From positions 2,088,501-2,152,500 of the forward strand of contig AP031352.1 of the NCBI GenBank assembly GCA_037833965.1: a stretch of 64,000 bases of DNA. The letters are read 5' to 3'. The stretch comes from Marchantia polymorpha subsp. ruderalis (taxonomy: Eukaryota > Streptophyta > Marchantiopsida > Marchantiales > Marchantiaceae). The notes beneath the pieces were generated by a model. That model was not told the origin of the DNA. It saw only the letters and a list, made by a program, of their open reading frames with translations, and did no database searches. Shown here one piece after another: positions 1,618-36,409 of the stretch (positions within the stretch are counted from its first letter, which is position 1; the number at the start of each line of letters is the position of its first letter). Both the position numbers and the translations under genes were made by a program.

Positions 1618-1640
1618 GTAACACACACACACACACACAC
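1618..1640. repeat. (AC)n microsatellite inside LTR U5
   Basis: A CA/TG dinucleotide run lies between TTACGCTGCA and the TTTCAGG motif of U5. The same run, with varying length, is in every LTR copy of the window (near 17700, 18500, 23950, 37165, 37675, 51130, 55545). Confidence 0.85.
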
Positions 1641-2366
1641 CTGAAACTACAGAAACACAACCCAGAGATCCGTTAGGACCTCTACTTCAAGATTTCAGGG
1701 GGAAAGTCTCTCACGAGCACACTCGGCAAAGCTGCGGGCAGTGACTTCCAACTCCGGCTTTTACAACGCTTCCACTAGCTTGCTGCTAGCGTAGGAAACC
1801 CGGTTTGGACTACCTACTTCGGATCGAAGTCACTCAGACGCGGTGAACAACACTCTCAACTCACAAAACGCGCAGAGAACACAGGTCCACACTGAAGGAC
1901 TCACTGTGAAACATTCCAGTAACACAACAACAGTCTATTGAAGAGTTTGAATTCTCAGGCACTTGTCATTCCCAGAAATACTACAGGGGTTACCCTCAAG
2001 GCACCTGCTGCAGCGTAACCTGAATTTACAACCAAGGCTTACACGAAGTAGCAAAACTTCACTTTGGCATTCAGGGGAAAAATCCCAAGGAGTACAATCA
2101 GAAAGAAACACTCGAAGGTGTAGGGGCGAAACTGTTCAAGTATCTAACTAGTCACTGGCTCTGAGCATCGGCAGTCACCCGCAGGTGCAGATCCGAACTA
2201 CTCAAGTCTCTAACCAATGTACTAGCTCTGAACATTCGGCCGAAGGCCTTCAGCTACAAAATGCGGAACGCTAAGTTGTAACTCCTCGTGCGTGGTGACA
2301 GAACTCAAGGACACAAACACGCAAAGGAAATGGGTTCCTGATCTGCACTTCTGATGGGAAAGAACC

Positions 2367-2395
2367 CCAGGCAAAACGCCTGGAACTATTTTATA
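2367..2395 (-). promoter_or_regulatory. LTR TATA box and downstream hairpin, element 1
   Basis: TATAAAATA lies at 2387-2395 on the minus strand, followed by CCAGGCGTTTTGCCTGG (2367-2383), a six-pair hairpin close to the expected transcription start. The arrangement is the same in the other LTRs. Confidence 0.7.
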
Positions 2396-4616
2396 CCTTC
2401 TAAGTCCTACCTAACACTACACTGCACTACCATGGTGCGAGCCGCAACAGAACCTACACCTGAGGAGTCGGCGGCTGCCTTCCCCTCTAACTTACAACCT
2501 AAATCTAACCCTAACCCTAAATCTGAATCCTAAGCCTACTGTACAGAGCCGCCAGCGCCTTCCCACCCAAGATCTGAGGCGGAAAATTTGCAGGCAGGCG
2601 TGGCCGGCCGAGATCAACGGCCCCACAAAATTTCAGATCCATCCGACCGTCCATCGCAAAGATATGGGCCCCGCAAGATCTCTGAACCTAGGCCAAAATT
2701 CCTTCTCCAAAATCCGAGGACTGTGGGTTCCACGCGTCCTACACGCAAGCCGCTTACTCGCAGGCCGCCACTGCCACACCTGAACATTCTACATTCATGA
2801 CCACCCGATCCTCGCCGGAGGAAATCTCCTTCCGCGCACCGCCGAATGCGTCCAACCGCCAAAGACGCACTTCCACACCTTGTCAATCTCTAACAGTCAC
2901 CCCGACGCCCATAACTCACGGATCCCTGCTTCGTTTGCAACGTTCTTGGGCTCGTTGGAACGAGCGTGTTGTGCTCTTTCCAACGAGCCCCTAACCAAGT
3001 CAAACGGATAAGAATTGAGAAAGTTATCACTGTTTTACTCTTCCGCCGAAGGCCTGCAACCGTCGAAGGCGTCCGTCCGCGCATCGGACAAAAGTCGATC
3101 TCCCTACCTCCGAAGGCGGAATTCCCGGAAGCGTAACCCCGAAGGCGAACATCTAGGGCCGAAGGAGAACGTCTACGTATCTTCCGATAGTCCTAACTCC
3201 CTAAATTCCCATCCGTCCCAGGCGTTCTTGGGCTCGTTGGAACGAGCGTCGCGAGCTCTTTCCAACGAGACCCTAAGCACCGCAAACCATTAAGAATTGA
3301 AAACACTATGTCAATTTTACCCTTCCGCCGAAGGCCTGCCTGTGCACAGGCCGCCTACTTGCAACCCGCCTGTGCACAGGCGTCCGCGTCGTCAGCCGTC
3401 CGCGTCGTCAGCCGCCCCTCTAAGTGTTAACGCCGAAGGCCCCTCTAAATGTTAGCACCGAAGGCCCTCCATATCAGAAACTTCCGCCGCTTCTAACTCG
3501 GTGATGCCTCATCCGTTTCAAGAGATCTTGGTCTCGTTGGAACCAGCTCGTCGAGTTCTTTCCAACGAGACCCGAATCAAGTCAAACCGCTAAGAATTGA
3601 GAAAGTTATGTCGGTTTTACTCTTCCGCCGAAGGCGTTCGCCTATCCACAGTCCGTCCGCGGCGATGACCTGGCTGTCCGCAGCGCTGACCTGGCCGTCC
3701 GCGGCGCTGACTTGTCCGTCCGCGGCGATGACCTGGCGCAGAAGGCGCCGTACACTTTCTACCTCACAAGGCGCATTTCTAGGGCCCAAGGCGGATTTCC
3801 CGCCGACGCCGAAGCGCCTGTGCACAGGCGGCACGTGTGGAGGTGGCCTGTGCACAGGCGACCTGTGCACAGGCGAACTTCCTTCGTCCGCGCATAGGAC
3901 AAAACTTTCTTCGCCTGTGCACAGGCGGAAAGTTGAGTATCTTGCGACCTTCATAACTCCCGGAATTCTCCTCCGTTCGTGGCGTTCTTGGGCTCGTTAG
4001 AATCAGCGCGTCAAGCTCTTTCCAACGAGACCCTAACCAAGTCGAGGCGTTGCGCATTGAGAAAGTTATGAGGGTTTCACTCTTCCGCCGAATGCACTCT
4101 CCCGTATCGCCGAAGGCGTTGACCCGAAGGCGTTGACCGAAGGCGTCTACCGCCCAAGGCGCATCTTCCGGCGGTTCTTCCGCCCAAGGCGCATCTTCCG
4201 GCGGTTCTTCCGCCGAAGGCGTACCGCCAAAGTCGCTCTACCGCCGAAGGCCCCCCCATCAGTAACTTCCGACACTCATAACTCAGTGACCTCTCATCCG
4301 TTTCACAAGTTCTTGGTCTCGTTAGAACGAGCGTCGCGAGCTCTTTGCAACAAGACCCGAAGCAACTCAAGACGTTACGAATTGAGAAAGTTATGAGTGA
4401 TCTACCGCCGAAGGTGCTCGAAGCTGATCCTGCAGCATGAACCGCCCGTTCCGTCCCAAGCGTCCCACTGTGGCCTAAGCCCAAAACCCCTTGACTGTCC
4501 TCGATCCTCTTTTTACTCTGGTTTCGCGTACCGATTACTATTTACAGCTGCTGCCGCGGTACTTACTATTCAAAAATGTTTTAGTTCCGACAAAAAACAA
4601 AAAGTGGGTTACCACA

Positions 4617-5652
4617 TGTTCGTACCGCCCCTCGGCCAATCCCCCTCTGCCTTGACGCGTGTGTCCGCATGTCGGACAAAAGTTCAACTCCTGCCTGTGC
4701 GCAGGCAGGAGCCTCGGCGGATGCTCCGCCGGCGCGGAACTTGAACATCCTCCTGTGCACAGGCGATCGCCTGTGCGCAGGCGAATTCCGTGCGCGGCGC
4801 TGCGCTGGCGCGGAAGGCGTTGACCGTGGTCAGCCGTCTCCGTCCAGTCTGTCCGTTCCTTGTCTCTTCGTCGGCGCTTCCGCCGCCGCAACTCCGTCCG
4901 TCCCAGAGCGCATCCATCCGTCCCGTCCGCATGGTCCGTACCGATTTGATTACTCTGGCGGCTCTTCCGCCGTACGCGGCGCTGCGCTGGCGCGGAAGGC
5001 GCCGTACACTTTCTACCTCACAAGGCGCATTTCTAGGGCCCAAGGCGGATTTTCCGCCGACGCCGAAGTGCCTGTGCACAGGCGGTCGCCTGTGCGTAGG
5101 CGGACTTCGCGCCTCCCCTAACCCTACTTCGCCTGTGCACAGGCGAACGCCTTCGCCCGCGCATAGGACAAAACTTGATTCCCCCTTCCGCGTAGGCGGA
5201 ATTCGCGCCGGTGGCGAACTCTTTCCGCCGTAGGCGACCATCTCCGTTTCTTCCAATAGTGATAACTCCCTAAGTCCTCGTCCGTTCCAAGCGTTCTTGG
5301 GCTCGTTGGAATCAGTGCGTCGAGCTCTTTCCAACGGGACCCTAACTTGGTCAAGGCGCCCGAGGGTTGACCTGATTATGGAGGATTTCCCTACCGCCGC
5401 GGACGCAACCTCCGAAGGCGGGTTTTGCGCCTTGTGTCGTAGGGGTCCTCACTGCAGAGCTCGCAGGGAGGGTGGTGCCTGTCCTTACTGCTGCACCCCA
5501 AATTCCAGATTCTACAAGATCCCTCGAGAATCCCCGCGATCTTCCGGATTCACTCTGTTTTGATGTACCGAAGGCTATTTACAATGCTGCCAGGGTACAG
5601 TTTTCCAAAAATGTTTTAATTTCCTCAAAATTGCCAAAAGTGGGGTACCACA
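4617..5652 (-). mobile_element. 3' LTR of element 2 (first 1.04 kb of U3)
   Basis: On the minus strand this starts TGTGGTACCCCACTTTTGGC at 5652, right after the polypurine tract of element 2, and matches 22654-23690 (the 5' LTR) with only a handful of substitutions by eye. At 4617 it is interrupted by element 1; the remainder, which would hold the U3 reading frame, must lie left of the window. The high identity of the two LTRs means element 2 inserted recently. Confidence 0.85.
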
Positions 5653-5668
5653 TGCCCCCCTCCTCAAT
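5653..5668 (-). promoter_or_regulatory. Polypurine tract of element 2
   Basis: The minus strand reads TTGAGGAGGGGGGCA directly before the LTR start at 5652. It lies just beyond the pol stop codon. Confidence 0.8.
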
Positions 5669-5689: not shown

Positions 5690-8530
5690 TCACATGTGGT
5701 ATTTCTTCAACCGCCACCCGTTCACTCGGGTGCCTAACAAATCGCCGGCCAGGTCCGCAAGTTGGATGGATCCATTCGGGAAGACTTCGACAACCCTGTA
5801 AGGTCCCATCCATCTTAGGTGCAGTTTGCCTGGGAATCTGGCATGCCTGCTGTCGTAGAGCAATGCCAAATCACCCGCCTGCAGGAGTACCGGTTTGATC
5901 TTTTTATCGTATCTCTCCTTTCGGCGGAGCTGGATTTTCCTGGTGCGATCTTCGGCGTCTCGTCTCCTCTCATCCAGCAGCGTGACCTCCTGTAACCTGT
6001 AGAGCTGACTCTCCTCTGCGCCCATCCTCTGCAAATCCAACGTTCGTTGGGTGGGTACTTCAAATTCGATCGGGAGGATCGGGTGTTGCCCATACACCAG
6101 AAAGTATGGTGTCTGTTTGGTCGTGATCTTCTCAGCTGTCCGGTACGCCCATAGAGCGGCTGCTAGCTTCGTATCCCAGTCGTGAGCGTGATTCACCGTG
6201 ACCTTGAGTAGTATTTTACACAGCAGACCATTGGACTTCTCCGTCAGTCCATTTGCCTTGGGATTGTATGGAGTAGTCTTCCGGTGCTTGATGTGGAAAT
6301 ACCGTGTCAGATCTTCGATGATCTGATTCAGAAAATGCGTGCCCCGGTCGCTGACTAGCTCTAAGGGACATCCGTAGCGTGTGATGATCGACTCAAACAA
6401 GAAGGCTGCCACTGTGGCAGCATCATCCCTTCTGGTGGCCCTGGCCTCTACCATTTTAGTGGCGTAGTCCGTTGCTACCAGAATGTAGCGCCTTCGTGTA
6501 CTTCTAGTCACTGGTTGTATCGGCCCTACAAAGTCAATGCCCCACTTTTCGAAAGGTGCTAGAGGCATGATGGGAGTCAGGGGCCAGCGAGTTGTAGGCG
6601 TCGGTCTCCCCGTCCTCTGGCAACTGTCGCACTTGCGGATGTAATCGAGAACATCCTTAAACATGGTCGGCCACCAATACCCCGCATTTAGAATCTTTGT
6701 GACCGTGTTCCTGGTGGCATAGTGTCCACCCGCCTCCTCTGTATGCATCGCACTCACTATTCTTGGTACCTCTGATTCCTCCAGGCATCTGCATAAGCGC
6801 TCATCTGCCATCTTTTTGAATAAAACCCCCTGCTGGAGTTGGTACGGGCCTGCCTTATGAATAAAGACAGTTCGCTGTTCCAAATCCATGCCTACGGGAC
6901 ACTGGAGGGTTAGCAGATATCGATACAGGTCGGCATAGCGGGACTCATGTCCTGCAGACAACTGAAATAACTCTTCATCTGGAAAATCGTCCACCAATTC
7001 CTCCTCTGTCGGCTGGGTCCATAATCGGGACAAATAATCCGCATTTTCGTGGTGCACCCCTTTCCTGGTCTGGACTGTGTAGGTGAACTCTTGTAGTAAC
7101 AACACCCACCTGGCGATCCGACCGGATAGGTCGGCTTTCTTGACTAGGTGTTGCAATGCGTAGTGGTCCACATGGAACACAAACTCGTAGCAGATTAGGT
7201 AGTGACGGAACTTTTTACAGGAGTACACCATCCCCAACGCTTCTCTCTCCGTCGTGGTGTACTTCCGCTCTGCTAGAGACAGCTGTCGGCTCGCGAAGTA
7301 GATCGGGTAGTCCTTTTTGTTGTCATCCTTTTGACTCAGTACTACACCGATGGCGAATGCAGATGTGTCAACGTAAACATGGAATGGTCGATTCCAGTCT
7401 GGACTCCTTAGTACGGGAGCAGTCGTGAGTTTCGCTTTAAGAGCCTCAAATGCTGACTGCTGGTTCGCACCCCAAGCATAAGGCTCGTCCTTCTTCAACA
7501 ACTTGGTCAGGTCCGCCGCCAGTATTGCATACATGTGTATGAATCTTCGGTAGTAGCCCACATGACCCAGGAATGCTCGCAGCTCTCTTAGATTCGTGGG
7601 TGGCTCAAGCTCGAGTATAACCTTGACCTTCTCGATGTCCATCGCAATGCCGTCTGCCGAGACCCGATGACCCAACAAGATCCCACTAGTCATAAAGAAA
7701 AAGCACTTCTCGGGATGCAGTGATAAACTGCTCTCTCTACATTTATCGAAGGTCTGCTTCAAGTGACTTAGGTGTTCAGACCGCTTCCCAAAGACACAGA
7801 AGTCATCTATGAATATTTCCAGGAACTTCCTCAGTTGTTCCTGGAAGATATTGGTCATCATCCGTTGAAAGGTGGTAGGCGCGTTGCACAGACCGAAGGG
7901 CATCTTGTGGTATGCGTAAGTTCCCCAGTCGGTTGTGAACGTAGTTTTATCCTTGTCCTGTTCCCGGATAGACACCTGATTGTAACCTGAGAACCCATCC
8001 AGGAAGCTATAACATTCATGTCCTGCGACATGGTCTAGAATGGCATCCGTGAATGGTAACGGGTGATGATCCTTGCGTGTTGCTGCATTCAACTTCCGGA
8101 AATCCTGACACACTCGTATCTTACCCGTCAACTTCTTGGGTACGATAACAATCGGCGACACCCACTCACTGCTGAGCACAGGGTAAATAATACCAGCACT
8201 CAAGTACTTATCTATCTCCTCTTTCACTAGCAAGGAGTATTTTGGGTTGAGGCGATACTGGCGCTGTCGTATGGGTACTGAGTCGTCCAGTAAATCGATA
8301 CGGTGTTCCCCATACCGTGCAGGTATCCCCTTCATGTCTTCGATCTTCCAGGCGAAGACGTCGACATAATGGCTAAGGAATGCCTGTACTTTCCTTAGCT
8401 CGTCTCCTCTCACTGCGCTTGATACCTTCAAGCACTTGTCGGGACTGAGTTGTACTTCGTGACAGTCACTAGGGTCGACAATGCCCTCGGTGTGACTCGT
8501 CTCACTCCTTCCCAGTCCCACAGTTAATTG
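5690..8530 (-). CDS. pol: Pol polyprotein of element 2: reverse transcriptase, RNase H, integrase
   Basis: This frame encodes the replication and integration enzymes of a Ty3/gypsy element. Counting from the GTG codon at 8521, the RT has FLDGFSGY (Asp175) and the catalytic box FIDD (237-240). RNase H follows with Asp385, Glu426 (TTEREAL) and Asp452 (HVDH). Integrase has an HHCC zinc finger (His593, His600, Cys631, Cys634) and a DDE triad at Asp663 (WGIDF), Asp725 (VSDRG) and Glu761; a GPY/F module (MGPYRVVEVFPNGS) lies near the C-terminus. I see no chromodomain. The frame has no own ATG at its start: it follows the gag-protease frame in phase after a TAG at 8531-8533, so it is probably made by stop-codon readthrough. 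It appears intact. Confidence 0.93.
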   Translation of the reverse strand, partial: QLTVGLGRSETSHTEGIVDPSDCHEVQLSPDKCLKVSSAVRGDELRKVQAFLSHYVDVFAWKIEDMKGIPARYGEHRIDLLDDSVPIRQRQYRLNPKYSLLVKEEIDKYLSAGIIYPVLSSEWVSPIVIVPKKLTGKIRVCQDFRKLNAATRKDHHPLPFTDAILDHVAGHECYSFLDGFSGYNQVSIREQDKDKTTFTTDWGTYAYHKMPFGLCNAPTTFQRMMTNIFQEQLRKFLEIFIDDFCVFGKRSEHLSHLKQTFDKCRESSLSLHPEKCFFFMTSGILLGHRVSADGIAMDIEKVKVILELEPPTNLRELRAFLGHVGYYRRFIHMYAILAADLTKLLKKDEPYAWGANQQSAFEALKAKLTTAPVLRSPDWNRPFHVYVDTSAFAIGVVLSQKDDNKKDYPIYFASRQLSLAERKYTTTEREALGMVYSCKKFRHYLICYEFVFHVDHYALQHLVKKADLSGRIARWVLLLQEFTYTVQTRKGVHHENADYLSRLWTQPTEEELVDDFPDEELFQLSAGHESRYADLYRYLLTLQCPVGMDLEQRTVFIHKAGPYQLQQGVLFKKMADERLCRCLEESEVPRIVSAMHTEEAGGHYATRNTVTKILNAGYWWPTMFKDVLDYIRKCDSCQRTGRPTPTTRWPLTPIMPLAPFEKWGIDFVGPIQPVTRSTRRRYILVATDYATKMVEARATRRDDAATVAAFLFESIITRYGCPLELVSDRGTHFLNQIIEDLTRYFHIKHRKTTPYNPKANGLTEKSNGLLCKILLKVTVNHAHDWDTKLAAALWAYRTAEKITTKQTPYFLVYGQHPILPIEFEVPTQRTLDLQRMGAEESQLYRLQEVTLLDERRRDAEDRTRKIQLRRKERYDKKIKPVLLQAGDLALLYDSRHARFPGKLHLRWMGPYRVVEVFPNGSIQLADLAGDLLGTRVNGWRLKKYHM

Positions 8531-12542: not shown

Positions 12543-13767
12543 TGTGGTACCCCACTTTTGGCAATTTTGAGGAAATTAAAACATTTTTGGAAAACTGTAC
12601 CCTGGCAGCATTGTAAATAGCCTTCGGTACATCAAAACAGAGTGAATCCGGAAGATCGCGGGGATTCTCGAGAGATCTTGTAGAATCTGGGATTTGGGGT
12701 GCAGCAGTAAGGACAGGCACCACCCTCCCTGCGAGCTCTGCAGTTAGGATCTCTACGGCGCAAGGCGCAGAACCCGCCTTCGGAGGTTGCGTCCGCGGCT
12801 GTAGGGAAACCCCCCGTAATTAGGTCAACCCTCGGGCGCCTTGACCAAGTTAGGGTTCCGTTGGAAAGAGCTCGACGCGCTGATTCCAACGAGCCCAAGA
12901 ATGCTTGGAACGGATGAGGACTTAGGGAGTTATCGCTATTGGAAGAAACGGAGGCGGTCGCCTACGGCGGAAAGAGTTCGCCACCGGCGCGAATTCCGCC
13001 TACGCGGAAGGGGGAATCAAGTTTTGTCCTATGCGCGGACGAAGGCGTTCGCCTGTGCACAGGCGAAGTAGGGTTAGGGGAGGCGCGAAGTCCGCCTACG
13101 CACAGGCGCTTCGGCGTCGGCGGAAAATCCGCCTTGGGCCCTAGAAATGCGCCTTGTGAGGTAGAAGTGTACGGCGCCTTCCGCGCCAGCGCGGCGCCGC
13201 GTACGTCGGAAGAGCCGCCAGAGTAATCAAATCGGTACGGACCATGCGGACGGGAAGGGTGGATGCGCTCTTGGACGGACGGAGTTGCGGCGGCGGAAGC
13301 GCCGACGAAGAGACAAGGAACGGACAGACTGGACGGAGACGGCTGACCACGGTCAACGCCTTCCGCGCCAGCGCGACGTAGCGCACGGAATTCGCCTGCG
13401 CACAGGCGAACGCCTGTGCACAGGAGGATGAAGTTCCGTGCCGGCGGAGAATCCGCCGGCGCTCCTGCCTGCGCACAGGCGGGAGTTGAACTTTTGTCCG
13501 ACATGCGGACACACGCGTCAAGGCAGAGGGGGATTGGCCGAGGGGCGGTACGAACAAGTGTACCGCGCAAGGCGGAAAACTCGCCTTCGGCGTTACGCCC
13601 CCATGTCCGCAGGGTGACACGCTCGCGGAGTTCAAATCCGCCAATTCGAGCGTGAGAGTTTAATCGACGACGGCGGAGCGTGAAGCCGCGCGTGAGAGCG
13701 AAGACCGTTCCAGCGTACAGCCGGCGCGGCCATCAAGTGAGACGTTCTTCACGACCAAGAGCCGACC

Positions 13768-16700
13768 ATGACCTTCGACCGGGCGGCGGAGAACGTCCCA
13801 TTCTTGAATTCGCGATTCCAATCTCTTGTGCGCGCTGCGCACATCCATCTGCTGGCTGCGGAACATTCTCGACGTCGTCGCACAGGAGATTTCTTGTTGA
13901 TTGAGGGAGAAGTGAGTGCGCGTGATTTGGAATTGAGGGCGATTAGAGTTTGCCGAGAGAGAAAGAAGCGCGGGCAGTGCGGAAGTAGAATGAGCGGGCG
14001 AGCGAGCCCAAGGAACGCAATGACGAGACCGAGCAGATTGCGGATGGTGCCACTTCGCCTACCGCAGAACGGGCTGCGCGCTTTTGAGGAGCGCTTAATA
14101 GCAAGAAAGCTCGATTTCTTGCTATGGGGATGGAATTACATCTGTGCGAATATGGTGCGCGAGTGGCTAGAGCCACAGGGACCACCCTCGCGCGGATTGC
14201 GTCCGCATGTTGACCGGTGGACAGTCCAAGATTGGGCACAGGCGTTGGGAAGATGTGCTGGCATGCCAGGGCATCTCCTTTTCGACAGTGAGAGCATCAA
14301 GGTGACCAAGCAAGAAGAGGCGCAATTTGTGGAGCTGTTCAAAACCGGGAGGTCTACCAAGAATGGGTACAGGACCCGTGATTACAAGGATCGATTTCGC
14401 CGGACTTTGTCCGCGGCGCTGATGCAATTACTGCAGCCGCACCGCGCCTGCTACATCACATTGTGGCAGGTCTCTTTTGTGGAGTGCGTCATCGAGGGAA
14501 CTCCAATTCACTGGGCGAGCATCCTGCACAGGGTGATGCGACAGCACGCGTTTGAGGAGAAGGGGGGAACTCTAAACCATCTTTCTCCTTTCCTCATCAA
14601 TTTTTATCGACTGCGGAATTGTTTGACAGCGGCGGAGCTTGAACATTTTCCGCCATTGTCCATCGACCATCCCGGGAAGTATGTGCGGGAGAACGAGGTC
14701 GACACTGATGCAGAGGAGTCACCGACTTCTACCCCATCAAGACGGAGGGACGAAGTGAGACACACTCCTGCAGCACGAGTGCCGCGGAAGCGGCGATGGA
14801 GGGAAGAGTCTAAAGAGGAGCAGCATCAAGAACCCTCTGCTCCCATTCGACCGCGGCCGCTGTGCGAGCCATACAGCCGGCCGAAGCAGAAGGCACGCAG
14901 ACTGGTGTTACCAGCCGACAGTGCGGACACGGCGACAATTGCGACGGAGATAGGAAGTGCGTCGCCAGAGAGGCATGAGGAAGCGCGGACGACCGCAGGA
15001 GCGACGGGCCACGCTGCAACTTCGACGGGAGAGAGGCCGCCTACGGGCCAAGGGCCTCTGGAGTTACCACGTGCGATGCGGACAGATGTTCCGTTTGCGC
15101 ACAGACGAGCCTCCGCGGACGGACGAGCCTCCGCGGACCGGCGAACACAAGTGGACGTGGATCTACGCTTACGCGTGGGAAGGAGCAGTCCGCCTGTGCA
15201 CAGGCGCTCGCCTGTGCACAGGTCGCCTGTGCACAGGACACCTCCACACGTGCCGCCTGTGCACAGGCAAGAGTCACCCCCGTTCCAACGTAGGAAGGGG
15301 AAGGAGCCGGCGGAAGAACCGCCTACGAGACACCGGCCCTCGGGGCCAGACCCTACGGCGCACCACGCGCCGCAATTTGCGCCTTCGGCGCCAGGGCCTT
15401 CGAGCCGAGGAGATACGAGCAGAGAGCGTGCGGAGGCCGCACCATCGGCGGGAAGTCCGCCGATAGATGCGCCTTCGGCGGTAGGGCCTATAGGCCAAGG
15501 AACATCGGGCGTGCGGCCCCCGGCCATGTCGCCTTCGGCGATAGATGTCCGCGGCGCTACGCCTGCGGCGGACAAGGCGCCGGCAAATGCGCCTGCGCAC
15601 GGGCCGGGCACAGCCCCCACGGACCGATCAAGGGAGCAGCAGACGGAGGAGCGGAGTGACTGTCCGCGGGATGAAATCTCGATGCGCGATGCGCAATCAA
15701 ACCCCGCGCAGCCACCTTCCGCTCGATCGCCTTCGGCGGCGGACGACGGCGGCAGAGAGGATGCGGTAGACAATCAACAAGCGAGAGACGGGGATGCCGC
15801 ACGAGTATATTCGCCTTCCGCCTTAGACATTTTGGCGACGAGCAGCGAGGCTGCAGCCGTGCCTTCGCAGGCAGCACACGTCGACGACGTGCAGCCCCAC
15901 TCGGGGCAGTCGCCGACGCAATCAATGGCGACTGAAATTCTCCACTCGGATGATGACGACGGAGGCTCCACGGAGGAAATGTCAGGAGCAGAAGACACCG
16001 AGGAGGAGGAGGAGGAAATTGTTGGAGCGCCGGCGGCGGCGCTCTCTGAGCAGGTGATTCCGTTGCTGCGGTACTTGGATCGCAAGGTCGATAAATACGC
16101 CGACCCACTCCAGCCGGGATCTTACATCGAGTTAGTGCGCAGGCGGACTCGCACTAAAGTCCACACCAGCAAGCTATTAGCTAGAGTGGACCAGGAGTTG
16201 AAGGAATTGAAGGAGAAGCATGCGTGCTTGTGGGGTCAGTACAAGCTTAATCAGAAATTCTACAAGCACTCCGAGAAGATGAAGGATGAGAAACTGGGCG
16301 AGCTCACCAAGGAGCAGGTGAAGGTCAAGGAAGCACTCATTTCTGAGCAGGCCCAGAATCGGATTTTGTCAGAGGAGCTCGTACGACAGACGCGGTTGTT
16401 GGAACAATGTCAGCTCGCACGGCAGGCGGATGAAGAGTTAATCCGCAGGTTACAGTCAGAGTGTGGCGAATTGAGAGCGCAACGTGCTGAAGCCGAATCG
16501 CAATTAGTGATAATTGAAGAGGATCGCAGGAAGGAGGCGGATCGCACGAAGGTGGAGACGGCGAGGCGAGTCGCCCACTGTCTCAAGGGCTACGCCCACT
16601 GGGAAGTGAAGGCGCAGGAGAAACTCACACTGCGTGAGTTTGAATTGCGCGCAGCCGGGTTGTTGTCAGGCGACAGTAGGAGTCGGCGGAAGGTAGCGAA

Positions 16701-16905
16701 GAAGCTCGATGCCTTTCTGTCGAAGGCACAGGATACCATGTCCGCCCTCGAAGGGGAGGTGTCCGCGGCGTTGCAGAGGTTGGGACTGCGCAGTCGAGCG
16801 GAAGATTGGCAGGGTAGGGAGTTAGTGCGCGGCAGTCGGCCGCGCAGGAGACGTAGTACAGGTTCCGCGGAGTGTAGTGTAGCGTGGTTCCGTGCAGGCG
16901 TGTAG
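13768..16905 (+). CDS. 1045-aa protein encoded within LTR U3
   Basis: I do not recognise a named family. Residues 85-310 form a conserved tryptophan-rich domain (FLLWGWNYICANMV, WTVQDWAQALGRCAG, YRTRDYKDRFRRTL, HWASILHRVMRQHAFEEKGG). Residues 320-740 are proline- and charge-rich, with four PVHR repeats that are translations of the palindrome CCTGTGCACAGG. An acidic run (about 727-750) precedes a C-terminal region (760-1045) with a long heptad-rich coiled coil (about 800-930) and a basic end. The first ATG gives 1045 aa, but the homologue at 28725 aligns only from the Met at residue 85 (base 14020), a possible true start. The stop lies 37 bp before the TATA box. It resembles an accessory ORF downstream of pol that has become part of the LTR; a link to plant 'transposon protein' domains of Athila/Tat-like elements is only a guess. 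Confidence 0.75.
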   Translation: MTFDRAAENVPFLNSRFQSLVRAAHIHLLAAEHSRRRRTGDFLLIEGEVSARDLELRAIRVCRERKKRGQCGSRMSGRASPRNAMTRPSRLRMVPLRLPQNGLRAFEERLIARKLDFLLWGWNYICANMVREWLEPQGPPSRGLRPHVDRWTVQDWAQALGRCAGMPGHLLFDSESIKVTKQEEAQFVELFKTGRSTKNGYRTRDYKDRFRRTLSAALMQLLQPHRACYITLWQVSFVECVIEGTPIHWASILHRVMRQHAFEEKGGTLNHLSPFLINFYRLRNCLTAAELEHFPPLSIDHPGKYVRENEVDTDAEESPTSTPSRRRDEVRHTPAARVPRKRRWREESKEEQHQEPSAPIRPRPLCEPYSRPKQKARRLVLPADSADTATIATEIGSASPERHEEARTTAGATGHAATSTGERPPTGQGPLELPRAMRTDVPFAHRRASADGRASADRRTQVDVDLRLRVGRSSPPVHRRSPVHRSPVHRTPPHVPPVHRQESPPFQRRKGKEPAEEPPTRHRPSGPDPTAHHAPQFAPSAPGPSSRGDTSRERAEAAPSAGSPPIDAPSAVGPIGQGTSGVRPPAMSPSAIDVRGATPAADKAPANAPAHGPGTAPTDRSREQQTEERSDCPRDEISMRDAQSNPAQPPSARSPSAADDGGREDAVDNQQARDGDAARVYSPSALDILATSSEAAAVPSQAAHVDDVQPHSGQSPTQSMATEILHSDDDDGGSTEEMSGAEDTEEEEEEIVGAPAAALSEQVIPLLRYLDRKVDKYADPLQPGSYIELVRRRTRTKVHTSKLLARVDQELKELKEKHACLWGQYKLNQKFYKHSEKMKDEKLGELTKEQVKVKEALISEQAQNRILSEELVRQTRLLEQCQLARQADEELIRRLQSECGELRAQRAEAESQLVIIEEDRRKEADRTKVETARRVAHCLKGYAHWEVKAQEKLTLREFELRAAGLLSGDSRSRRKVAKKLDAFLSKAQDTMSALEGEVSAALQRLGLRSRAEDWQGRELVRGSRPRRRRSTGSAECSVAWFRAGV
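15190..15269 (+). repeat. Cluster of GCCTGTGCACAGGC palindromes inside the U3 frame
   Basis: Four copies of CCTGTGCACAGG lie here in the same phase and encode Pro-Val-His-Arg. Equivalent clusters are at 20960-21045 (three exact copies) and 34655-34740 (four copies), whereas the diverged copy at 53410 has only one. Confidence 0.8.
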
Positions 16906-16941
16906 CGTAGTGCAGTGTAGTGCTAGGTAGGACTTAGAAGG

Positions 16942-16970
16942 TATAAAATAGTTCCAGGCGTTTTGCCTGG
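16942..16970 (+). promoter_or_regulatory. LTR TATA box and hairpin, solo 5.4-kb LTR
   Basis: TATAAAATA at 16942-16950 is followed by CCAGGCGTTTTGCCTGG at 16954-16970. The U3 frame ends at 16905, just upstream. Transcription from this promoter would begin near 16970 and define the start of R. Confidence 0.7.
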
Positions 16971-17697
16971 GGTTCTTTCCCATCAGAAGTGCAGATCAGG
17001 AATCCATTTCCTTTGCGTGTTTGTGTCCTTGAGTTCTGTCACCACGCACGAGGAGTTACAACTTAGCGTTCCGCATTTTGTAGCTGAAGGCCTTCGGCCG
17101 AATGTTCAGAGCTAGTACATTGGTTAGAGACTTGAGTAGTTCGGATCTACACCTGCGGGTGATTGCCGATGCTCAGAGCCAGTGACTAGTTAGATACTTG
17201 AACAATTTCGCCCCTACACCTTCGAGTGTTTCTTCCTGATTGTACTCCTTTGGGATTTTTCCCCTGAATGCCAAAGTGAAGTTTTGCTACTTCGTGTAAG
17301 CCTTGGTTGTAAATTCAGGTTACGCTGCAGCAGGTGCCTTGAGGGTAACCCCTGTAGTATTTCTGGGAATGACAAGTGCCTGAGAATTCAAACTCTTCAA
17401 TAGACTGTTGTTGTGTTACTGGAATGTTTCACAGTGAGTCCTTCAGTGCGAACCTGTGTTCTCTGCGCGTTTTGTGAGTTGAGAGTGTTGTTCACCGCGT
17501 ATGAGTGACTTCGATCCGAAGTAAGCAGTCCAAACCGGGTTTCCTACACTAGCAGCAAGCTAGTGGAAGTGTTGTAAAAGCCGGAGTTGGAAGTCACTGC
17601 CCGCAGCTTTGCCGAGTGTGCTCTTGAGAGACTTTCCCCCTGAAATCTTGAAGTAGAGGTCCTAACGGATCTCTGGGTTGTGTTTCTGTAGTTTCAG

Positions 17698-17721
17698 GTG
17701 TGTGTGTGTGTGTGTGTGTGT
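17698..17721. repeat. (TG)n microsatellite in U5
   Basis: A TG run follows TTTCAGG and precedes TTACGCTGCA, at the same place in every LTR copy of the window. Confidence 0.85.
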
Positions 17722-17919
17722 TACGCTGCACTGTGCGACCTCCGAGTGCGCTCCGAGTGGACACTTGCAGTATTTCTGGGAGTGACAGTAGCCTGAGAAT
17801 TCAAACTCCTCAATAGTCTGTTAAAACGTGACACTTTGTACCCTGTGTGTTCCTCTGTCCCTGTGGGTTCGACCTTTCTACCACTATATTGCAGTTTTAG
17901 CCTTTAGTGGGTTATTACA

Positions 17920-18262: not shown

Positions 18263-18280
18263 TCCCCGGCAGCGGCGCCA
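18263..18280 (-). promoter_or_regulatory. Primer binding site of element 2 (tRNA-Asp type)
   Basis: The minus strand reads TGGCGCCGCTGCCGGGGA. A 22-nt spacer (18281-18302) separates it from the LTR end, longer than the usual few bases; the spacer can fold as AAGAAG-TTGTCGG-CTTCTT. Confidence 0.8.
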
Positions 18281-19255
18281 AAAAGAAGTTGTCGGCTTCT
18301 TATGTAATAACCCACTAAAGGCTAAAACTGCAATATAGTGGTAGAAAGGTCGATCCCACAGGGACAGAGGAACACACAGGGTACAAAGTGTCACGTTTTA
18401 ACAGACTATTGAGGAGTTTGAATTCTCAGGCAACTGTCACTCCCAGAAATACTGCAAGTGTCCACTCGGAGCGCACTCGGAGGTCGCACAGTGCAGCGTA
18501 ACACACACACACACACACACACACACCTGAAACTACAGAAACACAACCCAGAGATCCGTTAGGACCTCTACTTCAAGATTTCAGGGGGAAAGTCTCTTGC
18601 GAGCACACTCGGCAAAGCTGCGGGCAGTAACTTCCAACTCCGGCTTTTACAACACTTCCACTAGCTTGCTGCTAGTGTAGGAAACCCGGTTTGGACTGCC
18701 TACTTCGGATCGAAGTCACTCCTACGCGGTGAACAACACTCTCAACTCACAAAACGCGCAGAGAACACAGGTCCGCACTGAAGGACTCACTGTGAAACAT
18801 TCCAGTAACACAACAACAGTCTATTGAAGAGTTTTAATTCTCAGGCACTTGTCATTCCCAGAAATACTACAGGGGTTACCCTCAAGGCACCTGCTGCAGC
18901 GTAACCTGAATTTACAACCAAGGCTTACACGAAGTAGCAAAACTTCACTTTGGCATTCAGGGGAAAAATTCCAAGGAGTACAATCAGAAAGAAACACTCG
19001 AAGGTGTAGGGGCGAAACTGTTCAAGTATCTAACTAGTCACTGGCTCTGAGCATCGGCAGTCACACGCAGGTGCAGATCCGAACTACTCAAGTCTCTAAC
19101 CAATGTACTAGCTCTGAACATTCGGCCGAAGGCCTTCAGCTACAAAATGCGGAACGCTAAGTTGTAACTCCTCCTGCGTGGTGACAGAACTCAAGGACAC
19201 AAACACGCAAAGGAAATGGGTTCCTGATCTATACTTCTGAGTTTGGGAAAGAACC

Positions 19256-19284
19256 CCAGGCAAAACGCCTGGAACTATTTTATA
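19256..19284 (-). promoter_or_regulatory. LTR TATA box and hairpin, element 2 5' LTR
   Basis: TATAAAATA (19276-19284, minus) is followed by CCAGGCGTTTTGCCTGG (19256-19272). This is the promoter expected to drive the genomic RNA of element 2. Confidence 0.7.
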
Positions 19285-19320
19285 CCTTCTAAGTCCTACC
19301 TAACACTACACTGCACTACG

Positions 19321-22300
19321 CTACACGCCTGCACGGAACCACGCTACACTACACTCCGCGGAACCTGTACTACGTCTCCTGCGCGGCCGACTGCCGCGCA
19401 CTAACTCCCTACCCTGCCAATCTTCCGCTCGACTGCGCAGTCCCAAACGCTGCAACGCCGCGGTCACTTCCCCTTCGAGGGTGGACATGGTATCCTGTGC
19501 CTTCGACAGAAAGGCATCGAGCTTCTTTGCTACCTTCCGCCGACTCCTACTGTCGCCTGACAACAACCCGGCTGCGCGCAATTCAAACTCACGCAGTGTG
19601 AGTTTCTCCTGCGCCTTCACTTCCCAGTGGGCGTAGCCCTTGAGACAGTGGGCGACACGCCTCGCCGTCTCCACCTTCGTGCGATCCGCCTCCTTCCTGC
19701 GATCCTCTTCAATTATCACTAATTGCGATTCGGCTTCAGCACGTTGTGCTCTCAATTCGCCACACTCTGACTGTAACTTGCGGATTAACTCTTCATCCGC
19801 CTGCCGTGCGAGCTGACATTGTTCCAACAACCGCGTCTGTCGCACGAGCTCCTCTGACAAAATCCGATTCTGGGCCTGCTCAGAAATGAGTGCTTCCTTG
19901 ACCTTCACCTGCTCCTTGGTGAGCTCGTCAAGTTTCTCATCCTTCATCTTCTCGGAGTGCTTGTAGAATTTCTGATTAAGTTTGTACTGACCCCACAAGC
20001 ATGCATGCTTCTCCTTCAATTCCCTCAACTTCTGGTCCACTCTAGCTAATAGCTTGCTGGTGTGGACTTTAGTGCGAGTCCGCCTGCGCACTAATTCGAT
20101 GTAAGATCCCGGCTGGAGTGGGTCGGCGTATTTATCGACCTTGCGATCCAAGTACCTCAGCAACGGAATCACCTGCTCAGAGAGCGCCGCCGCCGGCGCT
20201 CCAACAATTTCCTCCTCCTCCTCCTCGGTGTCTTCTGCTCCTGACATTTCTTCCGTGGAGCCCCCGTCGTCATCATCCGAGTGGAGAATTTCAGTCGCCA
20301 TTGATTGCGTCGGCGACTGCCCCGAGTGGGGCTGCACGTTGTCGACGTGTGCTGCCTGCGAAGGCACGGCTGCAGCCTCGCTGCTCGTCGCCAAAATGTC
20401 TAAGGCGGAAGGCGAATGTACTCGTGCGGCATCCCCGTCTCTCGCTTGTTGGTTGTCTACCGCGTCCTCTCTGCCGCCGTCGTCCGCCGCCGAAGGCGAT
20501 CGAGCGGAGGGTGGCTGCGCGGGGTTTGATTGCGCATCGCGCATCGAAATTTCATCCCGCGGACAGTCACTCCGCTCCTCCGTCTGTTGCTGCTCCCTTG
20601 ACCGGTCCGTGGGGGCTGTGCCCGGCCCGTGCGCAGGCGCGATTGCCGGCGCCTTGTCCGCCGCAGGCGTAGCGCCGCGGACATCCATCGCCGAAGGCGA
20701 CATGGCCGGGGGCCGCTCGCCCGATGTACCTTGGCCTATAGGCCCTACCGCCGAAGGCGCATCTATCGGCGGACTTCCCGCCGATGGTGCGGCCTCCGCA
20801 CGCTCCCTGCTCGTATCTCCTCGGCTCGAAGGCCCTGGCGCCGAAGGCGCAAATTGCGGCGCGTGGTGCGCCGGAGGGTCTGGCCCCGAGGGCCGGTGTC
20901 TCGTAGGCGGTTCTTCCGCCGGCTCCTTCCCCTTCCTACGTTGGAACGGGGGTGATTCTTGCCTGTGCACCGGCGGCACGTGTGGAGGTGTCCTGTGCAC
21001 AGGCGACCTGTGCACAGGCGGGCGCCTGTGCACAGGCGGACTGCTCCTTCCCACGCGTAAGCGTAGATCCACGTCCACTTGTGTTCGCCGGTCCGCGGAG
21101 GCTCGTCTGTGCGCAAACGGAACATCTGTCCGCATCGCACGTGGTAACTCCGGAGGCCCTTGGCCCGTAGGCGGCCTCTCTCCCGACGAGGTTGCAGCGG
21201 GGCCCGTTGCTCCTGCGGTCGTCCGCGCTTCCTCATGCTTCTCTGGCGACGCACTTCCTTTCTCCGTCGCAATCGTCGCCGTGTCCGCACTGTCGGCTGG
21301 TAACACCAGTCTGCGTGCCTTCTGCTTCGGCCGGCTGTATGGCTCGCACAGCGGCCGCGGCCGAATGGGAGCCGAGGGTTCTTGATGCTGCTCCTCTTCA
21401 GACTCTTCCCTCCATCGCCGCTTCCGCGGCACTCGTGCTGCAGGAGTGTGTCTCCCTTCGTCCCTCCGCCTTGATGGGGTAGAAGTCGGTGACTCCTCCG
21501 CATCCGTGTCGACCTCATTCTCCCGCACATACTTCCCGGGATGGTCGATGGATAATGGCGGAAAATGTTCAAGCTCCGCCGCTGTCAAACAATTCCGCTG
21601 TCGATAAAAATTGATGAGGAAAGGAGAGAGATGGTTTAGAGTTCCCCCCTTCTCCTCAAACGCGTGCTGTCGCATCACCCTGTGCAGGATGCTCGCCCAG
21701 TGAATTGGAGTTCCCTCGATGACGCACTCCACAAAAGAGACCTGCCACAATGTGATGTAGCAGGCGCGGTGCGGCTGCAGTAATTGCATCAGCGCCGCGG
21801 ACAAAGTCCGGCGAAATCGATCCTTGTAATCACGGGTCCTGTACCCATTCTTGGTAGACCTCCCGGTCTTGAACAGCTCCACAAATTGCGCCTCTTCCTG
21901 CTTGGTCACCTTGATGCTCTCACTGTCGAAAAGGAGATGCCCTGGCATGCCAGCACATCTTCCCAACGCCTGCGCCCAATCTTGGACTGTCCATCGATCA
22001 ACATGCGGACGCAATCCGCGCGAGGGTGGTCCCTGTGGCTCTAGCCACTCGCGCACCATATTCGCACAGATGTAGTTCCATCCCCATAGCAAGAAATCGA
22101 GCTTTCTTGCTATTAAGCGCTCCTCGAAAGCGCGCAGCCCGTTCTGTGGTAGGCGAAGTGGCACCATCCGCAATCTGCTCGGTCTCGTCATTGCGTTCCT
22201 GGAGTTCGCTCGCCCGCTCATTTTACTTCCGCACTGCCCGCGCTTCTTTCTCTCTCGGCAAACTCTAATCGCCCTCAATTCCAAATCACGCGCATTCACT

Positions 22301-22443
22301 TCTCCCTCAATCAACAAGAAATCTCCTGTGCGGCGACGTCGAGAATGTTCAGCAGCCAGCAGATGGATGCGCGCAGCGCGCACAAGAGATTGGAATCGCG
22401 AATTCAAGAATGGGACGTTCTCCGCCGCCCGGTCGAAGGTCAT
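19321..22443 (-). CDS. 1040-aa protein encoded within LTR U3 (5' LTR of element 2)
   Basis: Near-identical to the frame at 13768-16905 and to that at 33236-36373, with the same N-terminal tryptophan-rich domain, acidic patch and C-terminal coiled coil. Length differences fall in the low-complexity middle, where this copy has fewer palindrome-derived residues (ASADRRTQ instead of the doubled ASADGRASADRRTQ). The stop codon lies about 37 bp before the TATA box. In the 3' LTR of a complete element this frame would lie downstream of pol, in the position of an env-like or accessory gene, and could be expressed from a subgenomic RNA. In this 5' position it lies upstream of the LTR promoter. The function is unknown. 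Confidence 0.75.
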   Translation of the reverse strand: MTFDRAAENVPFLNSRFQSLVRAARIHLLAAEHSRRRRTGDFLLIEGEVNARDLELRAIRVCRERKKRGQCGSKMSGRANSRNAMTRPSRLRMVPLRLPQNGLRAFEERLIARKLDFLLWGWNYICANMVREWLEPQGPPSRGLRPHVDRWTVQDWAQALGRCAGMPGHLLFDSESIKVTKQEEAQFVELFKTGRSTKNGYRTRDYKDRFRRTLSAALMQLLQPHRACYITLWQVSFVECVIEGTPIHWASILHRVMRQHAFEEKGGTLNHLSPFLINFYRQRNCLTAAELEHFPPLSIDHPGKYVRENEVDTDAEESPTSTPSRRRDEGRHTPAARVPRKRRWREESEEEQHQEPSAPIRPRPLCEPYSRPKQKARRLVLPADSADTATIATEKGSASPEKHEEARTTAGATGPAATSSGERPPTGQGPPELPRAMRTDVPFAHRRASADRRTQVDVDLRLRVGRSSPPVHRRPPVHRSPVHRTPPHVPPVHRQESPPFQRRKGKEPAEEPPTRHRPSGPDPPAHHAPQFAPSAPGPSSRGDTSRERAEAAPSAGSPPIDAPSAVGPIGQGTSGERPPAMSPSAMDVRGATPAADKAPAIAPAHGPGTAPTDRSREQQQTEERSDCPRDEISMRDAQSNPAQPPSARSPSAADDGGREDAVDNQQARDGDAARVHSPSALDILATSSEAAAVPSQAAHVDNVQPHSGQSPTQSMATEILHSDDDDGGSTEEMSGAEDTEEEEEEIVGAPAAALSEQVIPLLRYLDRKVDKYADPLQPGSYIELVRRRTRTKVHTSKLLARVDQKLRELKEKHACLWGQYKLNQKFYKHSEKMKDEKLDELTKEQVKVKEALISEQAQNRILSEELVRQTRLLEQCQLARQADEELIRKLQSECGELRAQRAEAESQLVIIEEDRRKEADRTKVETARRVAHCLKGYAHWEVKAQEKLTLREFELRAAGLLSGDSRSRRKVAKKLDAFLSKAQDTMSTLEGEVTAALQRLGLRSRAEDWQGRELVRGSRPRRRRSTGSAECSVAWFRAGV

Positions 22444-23690
22444 GGTCGGCTCCTGCTCGTGAAGAACGTCTCACTTGATGGCCGCGCCGGCTGTACGCTG
22501 GAACGGTCTTCGCTCTCACGCGCGGCTTCACGCTCCGCCGTCGTCGCTTAAACTCTCACGCTCGAATTGGCGGATTTGAACTCCGCGAGCGTATTACCCC
22601 GCGGACATGGGGGCGCAGCGCCGAAGGCGAGTTTTCCGCCTTGCGCGGTACACTTGTTCGTACCGCCCCTCGGCCAATCCCCCTCTGCCTTGACGCGTGT
22701 GTCCGCATGTCGGACAAAAGTTCAACTCCTGCCTGTGCGCAGGCAGGAGCCTCGGCGGATGCTCCGCCGGCGCGGAACTTGAACATCCTCCTGTGCACAG
22801 GCGATCGCCTGTGCGCAGGCGAATTCCGTGCGCGGCGCTGCGCTGGCGCGGAAGGCGTTGACCGTGGTCAGCCGTCTCCGTCCAGTCTGTCCGTTCCTTG
22901 TCTCTTCGTCGGCGCTTCCGCCGCCGCAACTCCGTTCGTCCCAGAGCGCATCCATCCGTCCCGTCCGCATGGTCCGTACCGATTTGATTACTCTGGCGGC
23001 TCTTCCGCCGTACGCGGCGCTGCGCTGGCGCGGAAGGCGCCGTACACTTTCTACCTCACAAGGCGCATTTCTAGGGCCCAAGGCGGATTTTCCGCCGACG
23101 CCGAAGTGCCTGTGCACAGGCGGTCGCCTGTGCGTAGGCGGACTTCGCGCCTCCCCTAACCCTACTTCGCCTGTGCACAGGCGAACGCCTTCGCCCGCGC
23201 ATAGGACAAAACTTGATTCCCCCTTCCGCGTAGGCGGAATTCGCGCCGGTGGCGAACTCTTTCCGCCGTATGCGACCACCTCCGTTTCTTCCAATAGTGA
23301 TAACTCCCTAAGTCCTCGTCCGTTCCAAGCGTTCTTGGGCTCGTTGGAATCAGTGCGTCGAGCTCTTTCCAACGGGACCCTAACTTGATCAAGGCGCCCG
23401 AGGGTTGACCTGATTATGGAGGATTTCCCTACCGCCGCGGACGCAACCTCCGAAGGCGGGTTTTGCGCCTTGTGTCGTAGGGGTCCTCACTGCAGAGCTC
23501 GCAGGGAGGGTGGTGCCTGTCCTTACTGCTGCACCCCAAATTCCAGATTCTACAAGATCCCTCGAGAATCCCCGCGATCTTCCGGATTCACTCTGTTTTG
23601 ATGTACCGAAGGCTATTTATAATGCTGCCAGGGTACAGTTTTCCAAAAATGTTTTAATTTCCTCAAAATTGCCAAAAGTGGGGTACCACA

Positions 23691-27635: not shown

Positions 27636-28724
27636 TGTGGTAACACACTTTTTGTTTTTTTTTGCAGAATTTAAACAATTTTAGAAAACTAGTACCGAAG
27701 CAGTGTTTGTAGTTAGAAAAGGGTACGTTAAATAGAGAGGATTGATGAGATCGTCACGAGGTCACGAAGGATCGCGTAGTCGGATGTACCAACGCCAATG
27801 TCTTCGGCGCCTTCGGCAAAAGCTCCTTTTCTGAGGTGTCTCTACTCACGCGCTTCCAGCGTTTAAGGAAGCTACGCTTCCGGCGCAGACACCTCAGGAG
27901 GAGGTTTTGCTTAAGACGTCAGAAGAACGGCCCGGACCTCTGAAGGCTTCCGACCATGAGTGCGCCTTCGGCGATGCGCCGCTAGCGCGGGAAGGGAAAA
28001 CCTTCATAACGATCGGAATACACGGTAGATCCAGTTGGTTGAAATTGCATTAGAAAGAGCTCGGGACGCTCGTTCTAACGAGCCCAAGAGCGTCGGAGAT
28101 GGATCAGGGACGAAGAAGTTATGAGCGTCGGAAAACTCGTAGCCGGACATGCGCCGTTCGCGCTAGGGTTCACAGCCGGAAAGGACTCCCGTACACCTTC
28201 GGCGATGCGCCTTCGGCGGAATCGCGCGCTCACGGGAGGAAACCAACTCAGAGTCGGAAGCGCCTTTGGCGGCTGCTTATGGAAGGAAAGCGCCGGTCGG
28301 ATGTACGCCTCCGACGTGGCGCTGATGGCCGGCTGCGCTGGCATGATTTGCGCTGGCATGATTTGCGCCGGCGGGATATGCGCCGTCAGCAATGGACGAG
28401 GCATAAAGGACAAAATAAGCGGTACGAATACGCGCCGGCGTAATTTGCGCCGACTGGATGTGCGCCTCCAGCAAGGCGCCGATGGATAAGGAACACGCCA
28501 GCGGCGACGCGCCTCCGGTGATGGACGGGTTAGGGAAAGACAACATAGCCGACGTATACCCTACGGCGGACTCGAGTCCGGAAGACGGCGGCGGCGGGAG
28601 AATTCAACATTCACGCATGCGAATGCGCGCAGTGCGGAGACGTGAATTCGCGCATGCAAAGGGCGAACCGTTAGGCCGTATAACCGGCTGCGTACGTTGT
28701 AACCAGTAAGAACGTTGGACGTTC

Positions 28725-31568: not shown

Positions 31569-31600
31569 GATAGCGTAGTGTTAGTTAGGACCTTTGAGGG

Positions 31601-36373: not shown

Positions 36374-36409
36374 CGTAGTGCAGTGTAGTGCTAGGTAGGA
36401 CTTAGAAGG

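What the first reader, a model, noticed from the sequence alone, without database searches (positions are those of the whole stretch)
12543..17919. A 1045-codon reading frame located inside the U3 of a giant LTR
The same two ends that meet the polypurine tract (5652) and the primer-binding-site spacer (18303) of element 2 delimit a 5.4-kb unit with TG...CA ends and a perfect 5-bp duplication. So the long frame lies inside the LTR, between its start and its TATA box, and not in the element interior. A protein gene in U3 is known for the sag gene of mouse mammary tumor virus and is rare elsewhere. In a full element the 3' copy lies downstream of pol, where env-like or accessory genes sit; the 5' copy is duplicated at each round of reverse transcription. 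I know of no described plant element with this design, but I could not search.
Basis: partly seen in the sequence, partly recalled or inferred. Interest (0 to 1): 0.92.

Follow-up and report, generated by a model that had tools for sequence, protein, structure and literature searches.

The report
Protein gene inside a retrotransposon LTR
In a liverwort genome, the repeated ends of an abundant virus-like jumping gene carry a gene of about 1045 codons that selection has kept working, so the gene is doubled at each insertion and can stay behind in leftover single ends; what its protein does is not known.

Summary
Confirmed. 12543-17919 is a solo LTR (TG...CA ends, 5-bp duplication CCGCA) holding an open 1045-codon frame (13768-16905) that ends 36 nt before a TATAAAA box. 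Elsewhere in the genome, three elements with perfect 5-bp duplications have two 5.3-5.4 kb LTRs around gag, CCHC/protease and pol, and the frame is open in all six LTRs; one LTR pair is identical over 5391 bp. Of 14 close frames examined (not a random sample) 12 are open. Selection is purifying: over 66 pairs of open frames the median dN/dS is 0.26 (0.085-0.90), and 0.02 (0-0.15) in the N-terminal domain. Older subfamilies have the frame at the same place in their LTRs. The genome holds about 2400 copies of the N-domain stretch and about 2800 LTR starts (up to 2 mismatches). No Pfam family or solved structure matches the frame; it has no membrane-like segment and is modelled as helical N-domain, disordered middle and long coiled coil. 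Named homologues are all Marchantia polymorpha. The extra ORFs of plant elements that I read about lie in the interior; mouse mammary tumour virus sag is the positional analogue. In the window itself, the damaged minus-strand element has the frame in one LTR only. Expression and function are untested.

The parts
12543..17919 (+). Solo LTR A, 5377 bp, TG...CA; 5-bp duplication CCGCA at 12538-12542 and 17920-17924
13768..16905 (+). Open frame of 1045 codons inside LTR A
16942..16948 (+). TATAAAA, 36 nt after the stop; presumed promoter of the genomic RNA
   Evidence: role inferred
18303..23690 (-). LTR B, PBS-side LTR of the minus-strand element
19321..22443 (-). Open frame of 1040 codons inside LTR B
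18263..18302 (-). PBS (18263-18280) and 22-nt spacer to the LTR; PBS reads like the 3' end of tRNA-Asp (recalled)
5653..5665 (-). Polypurine tract next to the PPT-side LTR
5690..8521 (-). pol (RT, RNase H, integrase), 943 codons
8531..9892 (-). Aspartyl protease frame (truncated at its start compared with the C8 element)
1423..5652 (-). LTR D, chimeric: first 1040 bp and last 1008 bp of the LTR, frame-bearing middle replaced by 2.2 kb of repeats
31990..37384 (+). Solo LTR C, 5395 bp; duplication GTGCG at 31985-31989 and 37385-37389
33236..36373 (+). Open frame of 1045 codons inside LTR C
27636..37931 (+). Solo LTR F of an older subfamily, interrupted by solo LTR C; duplication GTTCC at 27631-27635 and 37932-37936
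   Evidence: start supported by the C9 relative
28725..31568 (+). Diverged, broken frame inside LTR F, open in two pieces (28725-29804 and 30018-31568)
50934..55345 (-). LTR E of a second older subfamily (about 10% diverged), lacking its first ~710 bp, with a broken frame (pieces 53405-54829 and 51952-53958)

Best explanation
A high-copy Ty3/gypsy-type LTR retrotransposon of Marchantia polymorpha carries, besides gag, CCHC/protease and pol in a 5.8-kb interior, a further gene of about 1045 codons inside each 5.4-kb LTR, upstream of the TATA box and so in U3. Shown: the place in both LTRs of single elements, open frames in young copies, purifying selection, and the same layout in older subfamilies. 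Inferred: reverse transcription copies the single U3 of the genomic RNA into both ends, so the gene is doubled and made identical at each round; on the genomic RNA it is the last gene. Most likely (inferred, about 0.5) it is made from its own mRNA, started in the 1.2 kb of U3 before the ATG and ended at the poly(A) site of the same LTR. The product (helical N-domain, disordered middle, long coiled coil, no membrane-like segment) most likely (inferred, about 0.5) is an oligomeric accessory factor of retrotransposition, perhaps nuclear.
For: Three elements with matching 5-bp duplications (GAGTG, CCTGT, CTGCT) and open frames in all six LTRs; LTR pairs differ by 21 of 5320, 9 of 5388 and 0 of 5391 bases. 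12 of 14 close frames open. dN/dS over 66 pairs of the 12 open frames: median 0.26, range 0.085-0.90; N-domain (codons 91-320, defined in 63 pairs) median 0.023, range 0-0.146; against older subfamilies N-domain 0.17 (E) and 0.23 (F). Counts: 2836 LTR starts, 2416 N-domain stretches, 1296 LTR/PBS and 695 PPT/LTR junctions, up to 2 mismatches. Interiors of 5791-5817 bp in 34 of 38 listed pairs. gag, CCHC, protease, RT, RNase H and integrase domains in the C8 element. TATAAA 32-44 nt after the stop in A, B, C, E, F, the C8 pair and the C9 relative. Diverged frames in the LTRs of F and of a C9 relative that runs on into the PBS spacer. Structure model.
Against: No RNA or protein data. Two of 14 close frames are broken (L041, L050), as are the frames of E and F. 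The window's own element has lost the frame from one LTR. Pairs between the C8 element and L039/L040 have dN/dS 0.58-0.90, driven by the disordered middle (up to 1.54), while their N-domains show no replacement change. The copies examined were chosen by good pol matches or exact junctions, so open frames are over-represented. The structure model is weak outside the coiled coil (mean pLDDT 53; N-domain alone 47). No TATA[AT]A common to the copies lies before the ATG, and nine ATGs precede the frame in LTR A.
Confidence: 0.72

Rival explanations
1. The protein is made only from a spliced subgenomic RNA of the full element, in the manner of env; only the 3' LTR copy matters, and 5' and solo copies are passengers.
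For: The frame is the last gene on the presumed genomic RNA. Splicing is reported for the extra ORF of barley Bagy2 (PMC7264820).
Against: None of weight here; splice sites were not examined and no RNA data were available. Frames of the two solo LTRs A and C are open, but recent solo LTRs would be open in either case.
Confidence: 0.3
2. Transcription of the genomic RNA starts before the frame, so the frame is in R and is the first gene of the RNA; the TATA box after it is not the main promoter.
For: The stretch just before and over the ATG has long runs without change in seven A-type LTRs (994-1050, 1148-1208, 1217-1271).
Against: A TATAAA at one place after the stop is kept in every LTR checked, including subfamilies E and F and the C9 relative, and none common to the copies lies before the frame.
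Confidence: 0.1
3. The frame is an env-like gene.
For: Same place on the RNA as env, after pol and in sense.
Against: Highest 19-residue Kyte-Doolittle mean is 1.14, no membrane-like segment; charged, disordered and coiled-coil model.
Confidence: 0.04
4. The frame is open by chance or through base composition and is not a gene.
For: GC-rich; long open frames also exist on the other strand (e.g. 20141-21385).
Against: Chance about 3e-17; N-domain dN/dS median 0.023 over 63 pairs; the protein is kept to 44-58% identity in diverged relatives.
Confidence: 0.01

Closest known systems
Mouse mammary tumour virus sag/naf frame in U3 (PMC9412291, passages)
   Same: Sense protein frame in U3, hence in both LTRs; in MMTV a promoter inside U3 (P2) is reported to drive it.
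   Different: MMTV is an animal retrovirus with env and a membrane-bound superantigen (recalled); here a plant Ty3/gypsy-type element, a frame of about 1045 codons and a coiled-coil protein. No sequence comparison with sag was made.
Plant elements with additional ORFs: Grande gene23, RIRE2, Retand ORF4, PvRetro13 ORF2 (PMC7264820, parts 1-2 of 3 read)
   Same: Extra gene kept in most copies; no clear relatives; some products nuclear or with an SMC-like domain; Grande gene23 has its own promoter.
   Different: Those lie in the interior between pol and the 3' LTR, in antisense; here the gene is in sense and inside the LTR. PF04195, reported for Retand ORF4, was not found here.
Retrosat2/RIRE3/RIRE8 ORF0 with long LTRs (PMC3485330, passages)
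   Same: Ty3/gypsy-type family with unusually long LTRs and an extra ORF.
   Different: ORF0 lies in the interior, upstream of gag-pol; LTRs about 3.2 kb.
[not shown]
   Same: Ty3/gypsy lineages reported in this genus.
   Different: Membership not tested; the passage mentions no LTR gene.

Membership tests
Ty3/gypsy LTR retrotransposon | Two direct LTRs with TG...CA ends and a 5-bp target duplication | tested here: met
   Three elements: C8, C3:2473808 and C3:3044618
Ty3/gypsy LTR retrotransposon | PBS after the 5' LTR and polypurine tract before the 3' LTR | tested here: met
   1296 and 695 junctions genome-wide
Ty3/gypsy LTR retrotransposon | gag, then protease, RT, RNase H, integrase in that order | tested here: met
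   (protease match slightly below the curated cut-off)
MMTV sag-type U3 gene | Sense protein frame wholly in U3, in both LTRs | tested here: inconclusive
   In both LTRs: met. U3: from the TATA box only
MMTV sag-type U3 gene | Promoter inside U3 that drives the frame | not testable with these tools
   No RNA data; no TATA[AT]A common to the copies before the ATG
MMTV sag-type U3 gene | Homology to Sag | not tested
   No direct comparison made; no Pfam family matched the window frame at E <= 1
Plant internal additional-ORF elements (Grande/Retand type) | Extra ORF in the interior between pol and the 3' LTR | tested here: not met
   Frame starts about 1.2 kb inside the LTR
Plant internal additional-ORF elements (Grande/Retand type) | Transposase_28 domain (PF04195), as reported for Retand ORF4 | tested here: not met
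   No match over the cut-off in the genome, best E 0.89; not among families matched by 38 homologues
env-like plant elements | Transmembrane segment | tested here: not met
   Kyte-Doolittle maximum 1.14 over 19 residues
Tat lineage | Place in an RT tree; additional RNase H | not tested
   No RT tree was built; Pfam lists RT_RNaseH and RT_RNaseH_2 on one overlapping stretch only

The most novel reading that the evidence does not exclude
Each LTR is a self-contained gene cassette: its own promoter in the first part of U3, a gene of about 1045 codons, and a poly(A) site in R. Recombination to a solo LTR, which normally ends an element, would then leave a working gene for a trans-acting factor. 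The many LTRs of the family would supply a shared protein that helps all full-length copies, for example by countering silencing or guiding the integration complex.
Probability: 0.25. Interest if true: 0.85.

Novelty: new variant of a known kind. Interest (0 to 1): 0.68.

Why it matters
LTRs are usually taken as regulatory DNA. Here a large gene under selection sits in the LTR of an abundant plant family, is doubled at each insertion and can stay behind in solo LTRs. If it is expressed, it extends extra genes of plant retrotransposons from the interior to U3, may explain why these LTRs are so long, and offers a haploid model plant, with elements whose LTRs are identical, in which to ask what accessory proteins of plant retrotransposons do. 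It also means that dozens of annotated Marchantia 'hypothetical proteins' are related to this LTR gene.

Tried and rejected
Rejected: the frame as an interior gene or as gag (gag is a separate 454-codon frame after the PBS); chance ORF; env-like gene; Transposase_28.

Led nowhere: Pfam on the window frame (no family at E <= 1) and on 38 homologues (17 families, each in one or two members, best Extensin_1 at 2e-4, read as low complexity or coiled coil); PDB sequences (none); structure of the N-domain (pLDDT 47), so no fold search was run. Homologue searches gave 4, 44 and 79 hits (each scored only about 8000 candidates). I do not know which other liverworts that database holds, so I claim nothing on species range. 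An exact LTR-end pattern (5709 places) was too narrow to place the diverged relatives on C1. The genome search with the window protein did not complete.

Dropped or failed: two pol comparisons (L012, L018) misaligned (45 codons) and are not used; A-F2 gave no finite dS. One search stopped on an error after its pairwise tables; searches cover the rest. Broken L041 and L050 are left out of the 66 pairs; the open first part of L041 (315 codons) gave 0.13-0.52. The best place for F's left end is a 5-base duplicate found by scanning about 9 kb, where a chance match is not unlikely (my estimate); the LTR-like start there and the C9 alignment support it.
Full report
WHERE. The window is C3:2088501-2152500 of a 241-Mb genome in nine contigs. 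The named homologues of the frame are all from Marchantia polymorpha subsp. ruderalis, so I take the genome to be this liverwort; the size and contig number fit (recalled).

OBSERVATION. 12543-17919 begins TGTGGTACCCC, ends GGGTTATTACA and is flanked by CCGCA on both sides: a solo LTR of 5377 bp. It holds an open frame of 1045 codons from ATG at 13768 to the stop at 16905; by base composition the chance is about 3e-17. The same start meets a polypurine tract at 5653-5665, and the same end meets a spacer and PBS at 18302-18263, in a minus-strand element with protease and pol. The PBS resembles the 3' end of tRNA-Asp (recalled).

A CORRECTION FOR THE WINDOW. The minus-strand element is damaged. 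Its PBS-side LTR (18303-23690) holds the frame (1040 codons). Its PPT-side LTR (1423-5652) keeps the first 1040 and the last 1008 bp of the LTR; the part with the frame is replaced by 2.2 kb of repeats, and the gag region is mostly replaced by an inverted relative of those repeats. The window alone does not show one element with the frame in both LTRs.

WHOLE ELEMENTS. The genome does. On C8 (L043, L044) a 5336-bp LTR is followed by the same PBS, a 454-codon gag (Retrotrans_gag, Ty3_capsid), a 485-codon CCHC/protease frame, pol, the same PPT and a 5335-bp LTR, with GAGTG on both sides; the LTR frames have 1046 and 1051 codons, and the LTRs differ at 21 of 5320 aligned bases. The element at C3:2473808 has LTRs of 5388 and 5403 bp with nine differences, duplication CCTGT, frames of 1045 and 1050 codons. 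The element at C3:3044618 has LTRs identical over 5391 bp, duplication CTGCT, frames of 1045 and 1045 codons. For these two the interiors were not fetched; the distance between their junctions is in the list. A fourth pair on C1 has no matching flanks and 193 differences, one open frame (1029) and one broken, and may be a recombinant. Of 14 close frames examined 12 are open: A, B, C, L039, L040, L043, L044, L047, L048, L049, L051, L052; L041 and L050 are broken. L039-L044 were picked from the best pol matches and L047-L052 from exact junction matches, so this is not a genome-wide rate.

NUMBERS. With up to 2 mismatches the genome has 2836 LTR starts, 2416 copies of a 34-base stretch of the N-domain, 1296 LTR/PBS junctions and 695 PPT/LTR junctions; reversed control patterns gave none. 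Using the listed exact places only: of 74 N-domain places, 53 have an exact LTR start 1558-1636 bp upstream on the same strand and 21 have none in the list. Interiors from PBS side to PPT side measure 5791-5817 bp in 34 of 38 pairs, the other four 5934-12650. Seven LTRs shared by tandem elements measure 5296 (three), 5385 (three) and 4230 bp (the window's chimeric one).

SELECTION. Over all 66 pairs of the 12 open frames, dN/dS of the whole frame is 0.085-0.90 with a median of 0.26 (one pair is identical and undefined). In codons 91-320 it is 0-0.146 with a median of 0.023 in the 63 pairs where it is defined. Against my reading: pairs between the C8 element and L039/L040 reach 0.58-0.90, because of the disordered middle (up to 1.54), on few changes; their N-domains have no replacement change. 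LTRs of one element give 0.45, 0.64 and 0.75 on 6-12 changes, as expected for changes after insertion. Against older subfamilies the N-domain gives 0.17 (E; bootstrap 0.09-0.29) and 0.23 (F; 0.13-0.35). pol gives 0.07 and 0.10 in two usable comparisons, so pol is under stronger constraint than the whole LTR frame.

DEPTH. LTR F (27636-37931, duplication GTTCC, with LTR C nested in it) is an older solo LTR; its diverged frame, now open in two pieces, sits at the same place. A relative on C9 has an open frame of 872 residues that matches P0003 at 64% and 53% in two stretches. It ends 44 nt before TATAAA and about 1.04 kb before an LTR end, and then 22 of 24 bases of the PBS spacer follow before a break (counted by eye). 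The start of its LTR aligns with the start of F. So the LTR gene is older than the split of these subfamilies. Other diverged relatives were not checked for LTR boundaries.

WHY U3. TATAAA lies 32-44 nt after the stop in A, B, C, E, F, the C8 pair and the C9 relative, and L039 and L041 have one at the matching place. Of the eight LTRs scanned only B has another (position 70). If this is the promoter of the genomic RNA, the frame is in U3: not at the 5' end of that RNA, and last before its 3' end. No transcript data were at hand.

PROTEIN. No Pfam match for the window frame, scattered weak ones among 38 homologues, no PDB match, no PF04195 over its cut-off in the genome. AlphaFold2 (mean pLDDT 53) gives helices at 100-293, disorder over most of 300-750 and a long helix at 802-965 with 98 residues at pLDDT 90 or more in the model. 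No membrane-like segment; several basic clusters. From this I infer an oligomeric, perhaps nuclear, accessory protein; nothing tests it.

HOW IT PROBABLY WORKS. Shown: layout, selection, recurrence. Inferred: both LTR copies come from the one U3 of the RNA; a separate mRNA from the first part of U3 ends at the poly(A) site of the same LTR, so that any LTR, solo ones included, could make the protein. The spliced-RNA rival is open.

KNOWN THINGS. Literature searches showed listings (capped for 35, 36 and 86); among the listed titles and abstract starts, and in the passages I read of eight papers, no plant element with a gene inside its LTR is described. Most subscription papers are not held, so this is weak evidence of absence. 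The review of extra ORFs in plant elements (PMC7264820; parts 1 and 2 of 3) speaks of the internal region. Passages only were seen of PMC3485330, PMC11302176, PMC4031123, PMC10787394, PMC9985172, PMC9412291 and PMC10508981. The position is that of MMTV sag. Verdict: a new variant of a known kind.

Noticed in passing
1423-5652 and 9776-12098: An LTR form whose frame-bearing middle is replaced by 2.2 kb of repeats; the exchange begins almost exactly at the stop codon (A 16907 on is kept). It may be a frame-less form that relies on frame-bearing copies.
   Followed up: partly
24 places in the window, e.g. 115, 3338, 10510, 15192, 21024, 34660, 53410: The 14-base palindrome GCCTGTGCACAGGC recurs 24 times, in noncoding LTR parts and inside the frame, where it codes for the PVHR repeats.
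   Followed up: no
229-4430, 9963-12966, 32238, 57480-58230: A repeat of about 176 bp (GGAAAGAGCTCG...AACGAGCCC) recurs in LTRs of several subfamilies and in many copies in the frame-less LTR form.
   Followed up: no
G000 C3:20843023-20880735 and C2:31345303-31384689: Regular arrays LTR-interior-LTR-interior of period about 11.1 kb with shared LTRs.
   Followed up: partly
43588-44262 and 48969-49643: Two near-identical 224-codon frames that look like secreted germin/cupin-type proteins (recalled resemblance), in a 2.3-kb duplication at 90% identity.
   Followed up: no
41893-42586: Tandem repeat of about 64 bp upstream of the first of these frames.
   Followed up: no
20141-21385 (+): A 414-codon open frame antisense to the LTR frame, also present in other copies (315-425 codons); probably a shadow of codon usage.
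   Followed up: no
58488-63934 (-): A second Ty3/gypsy-type element with an aspartyl-protease frame with CCHC-like motifs (901 codons) and a pol frame (931 codons).
   Followed up: no
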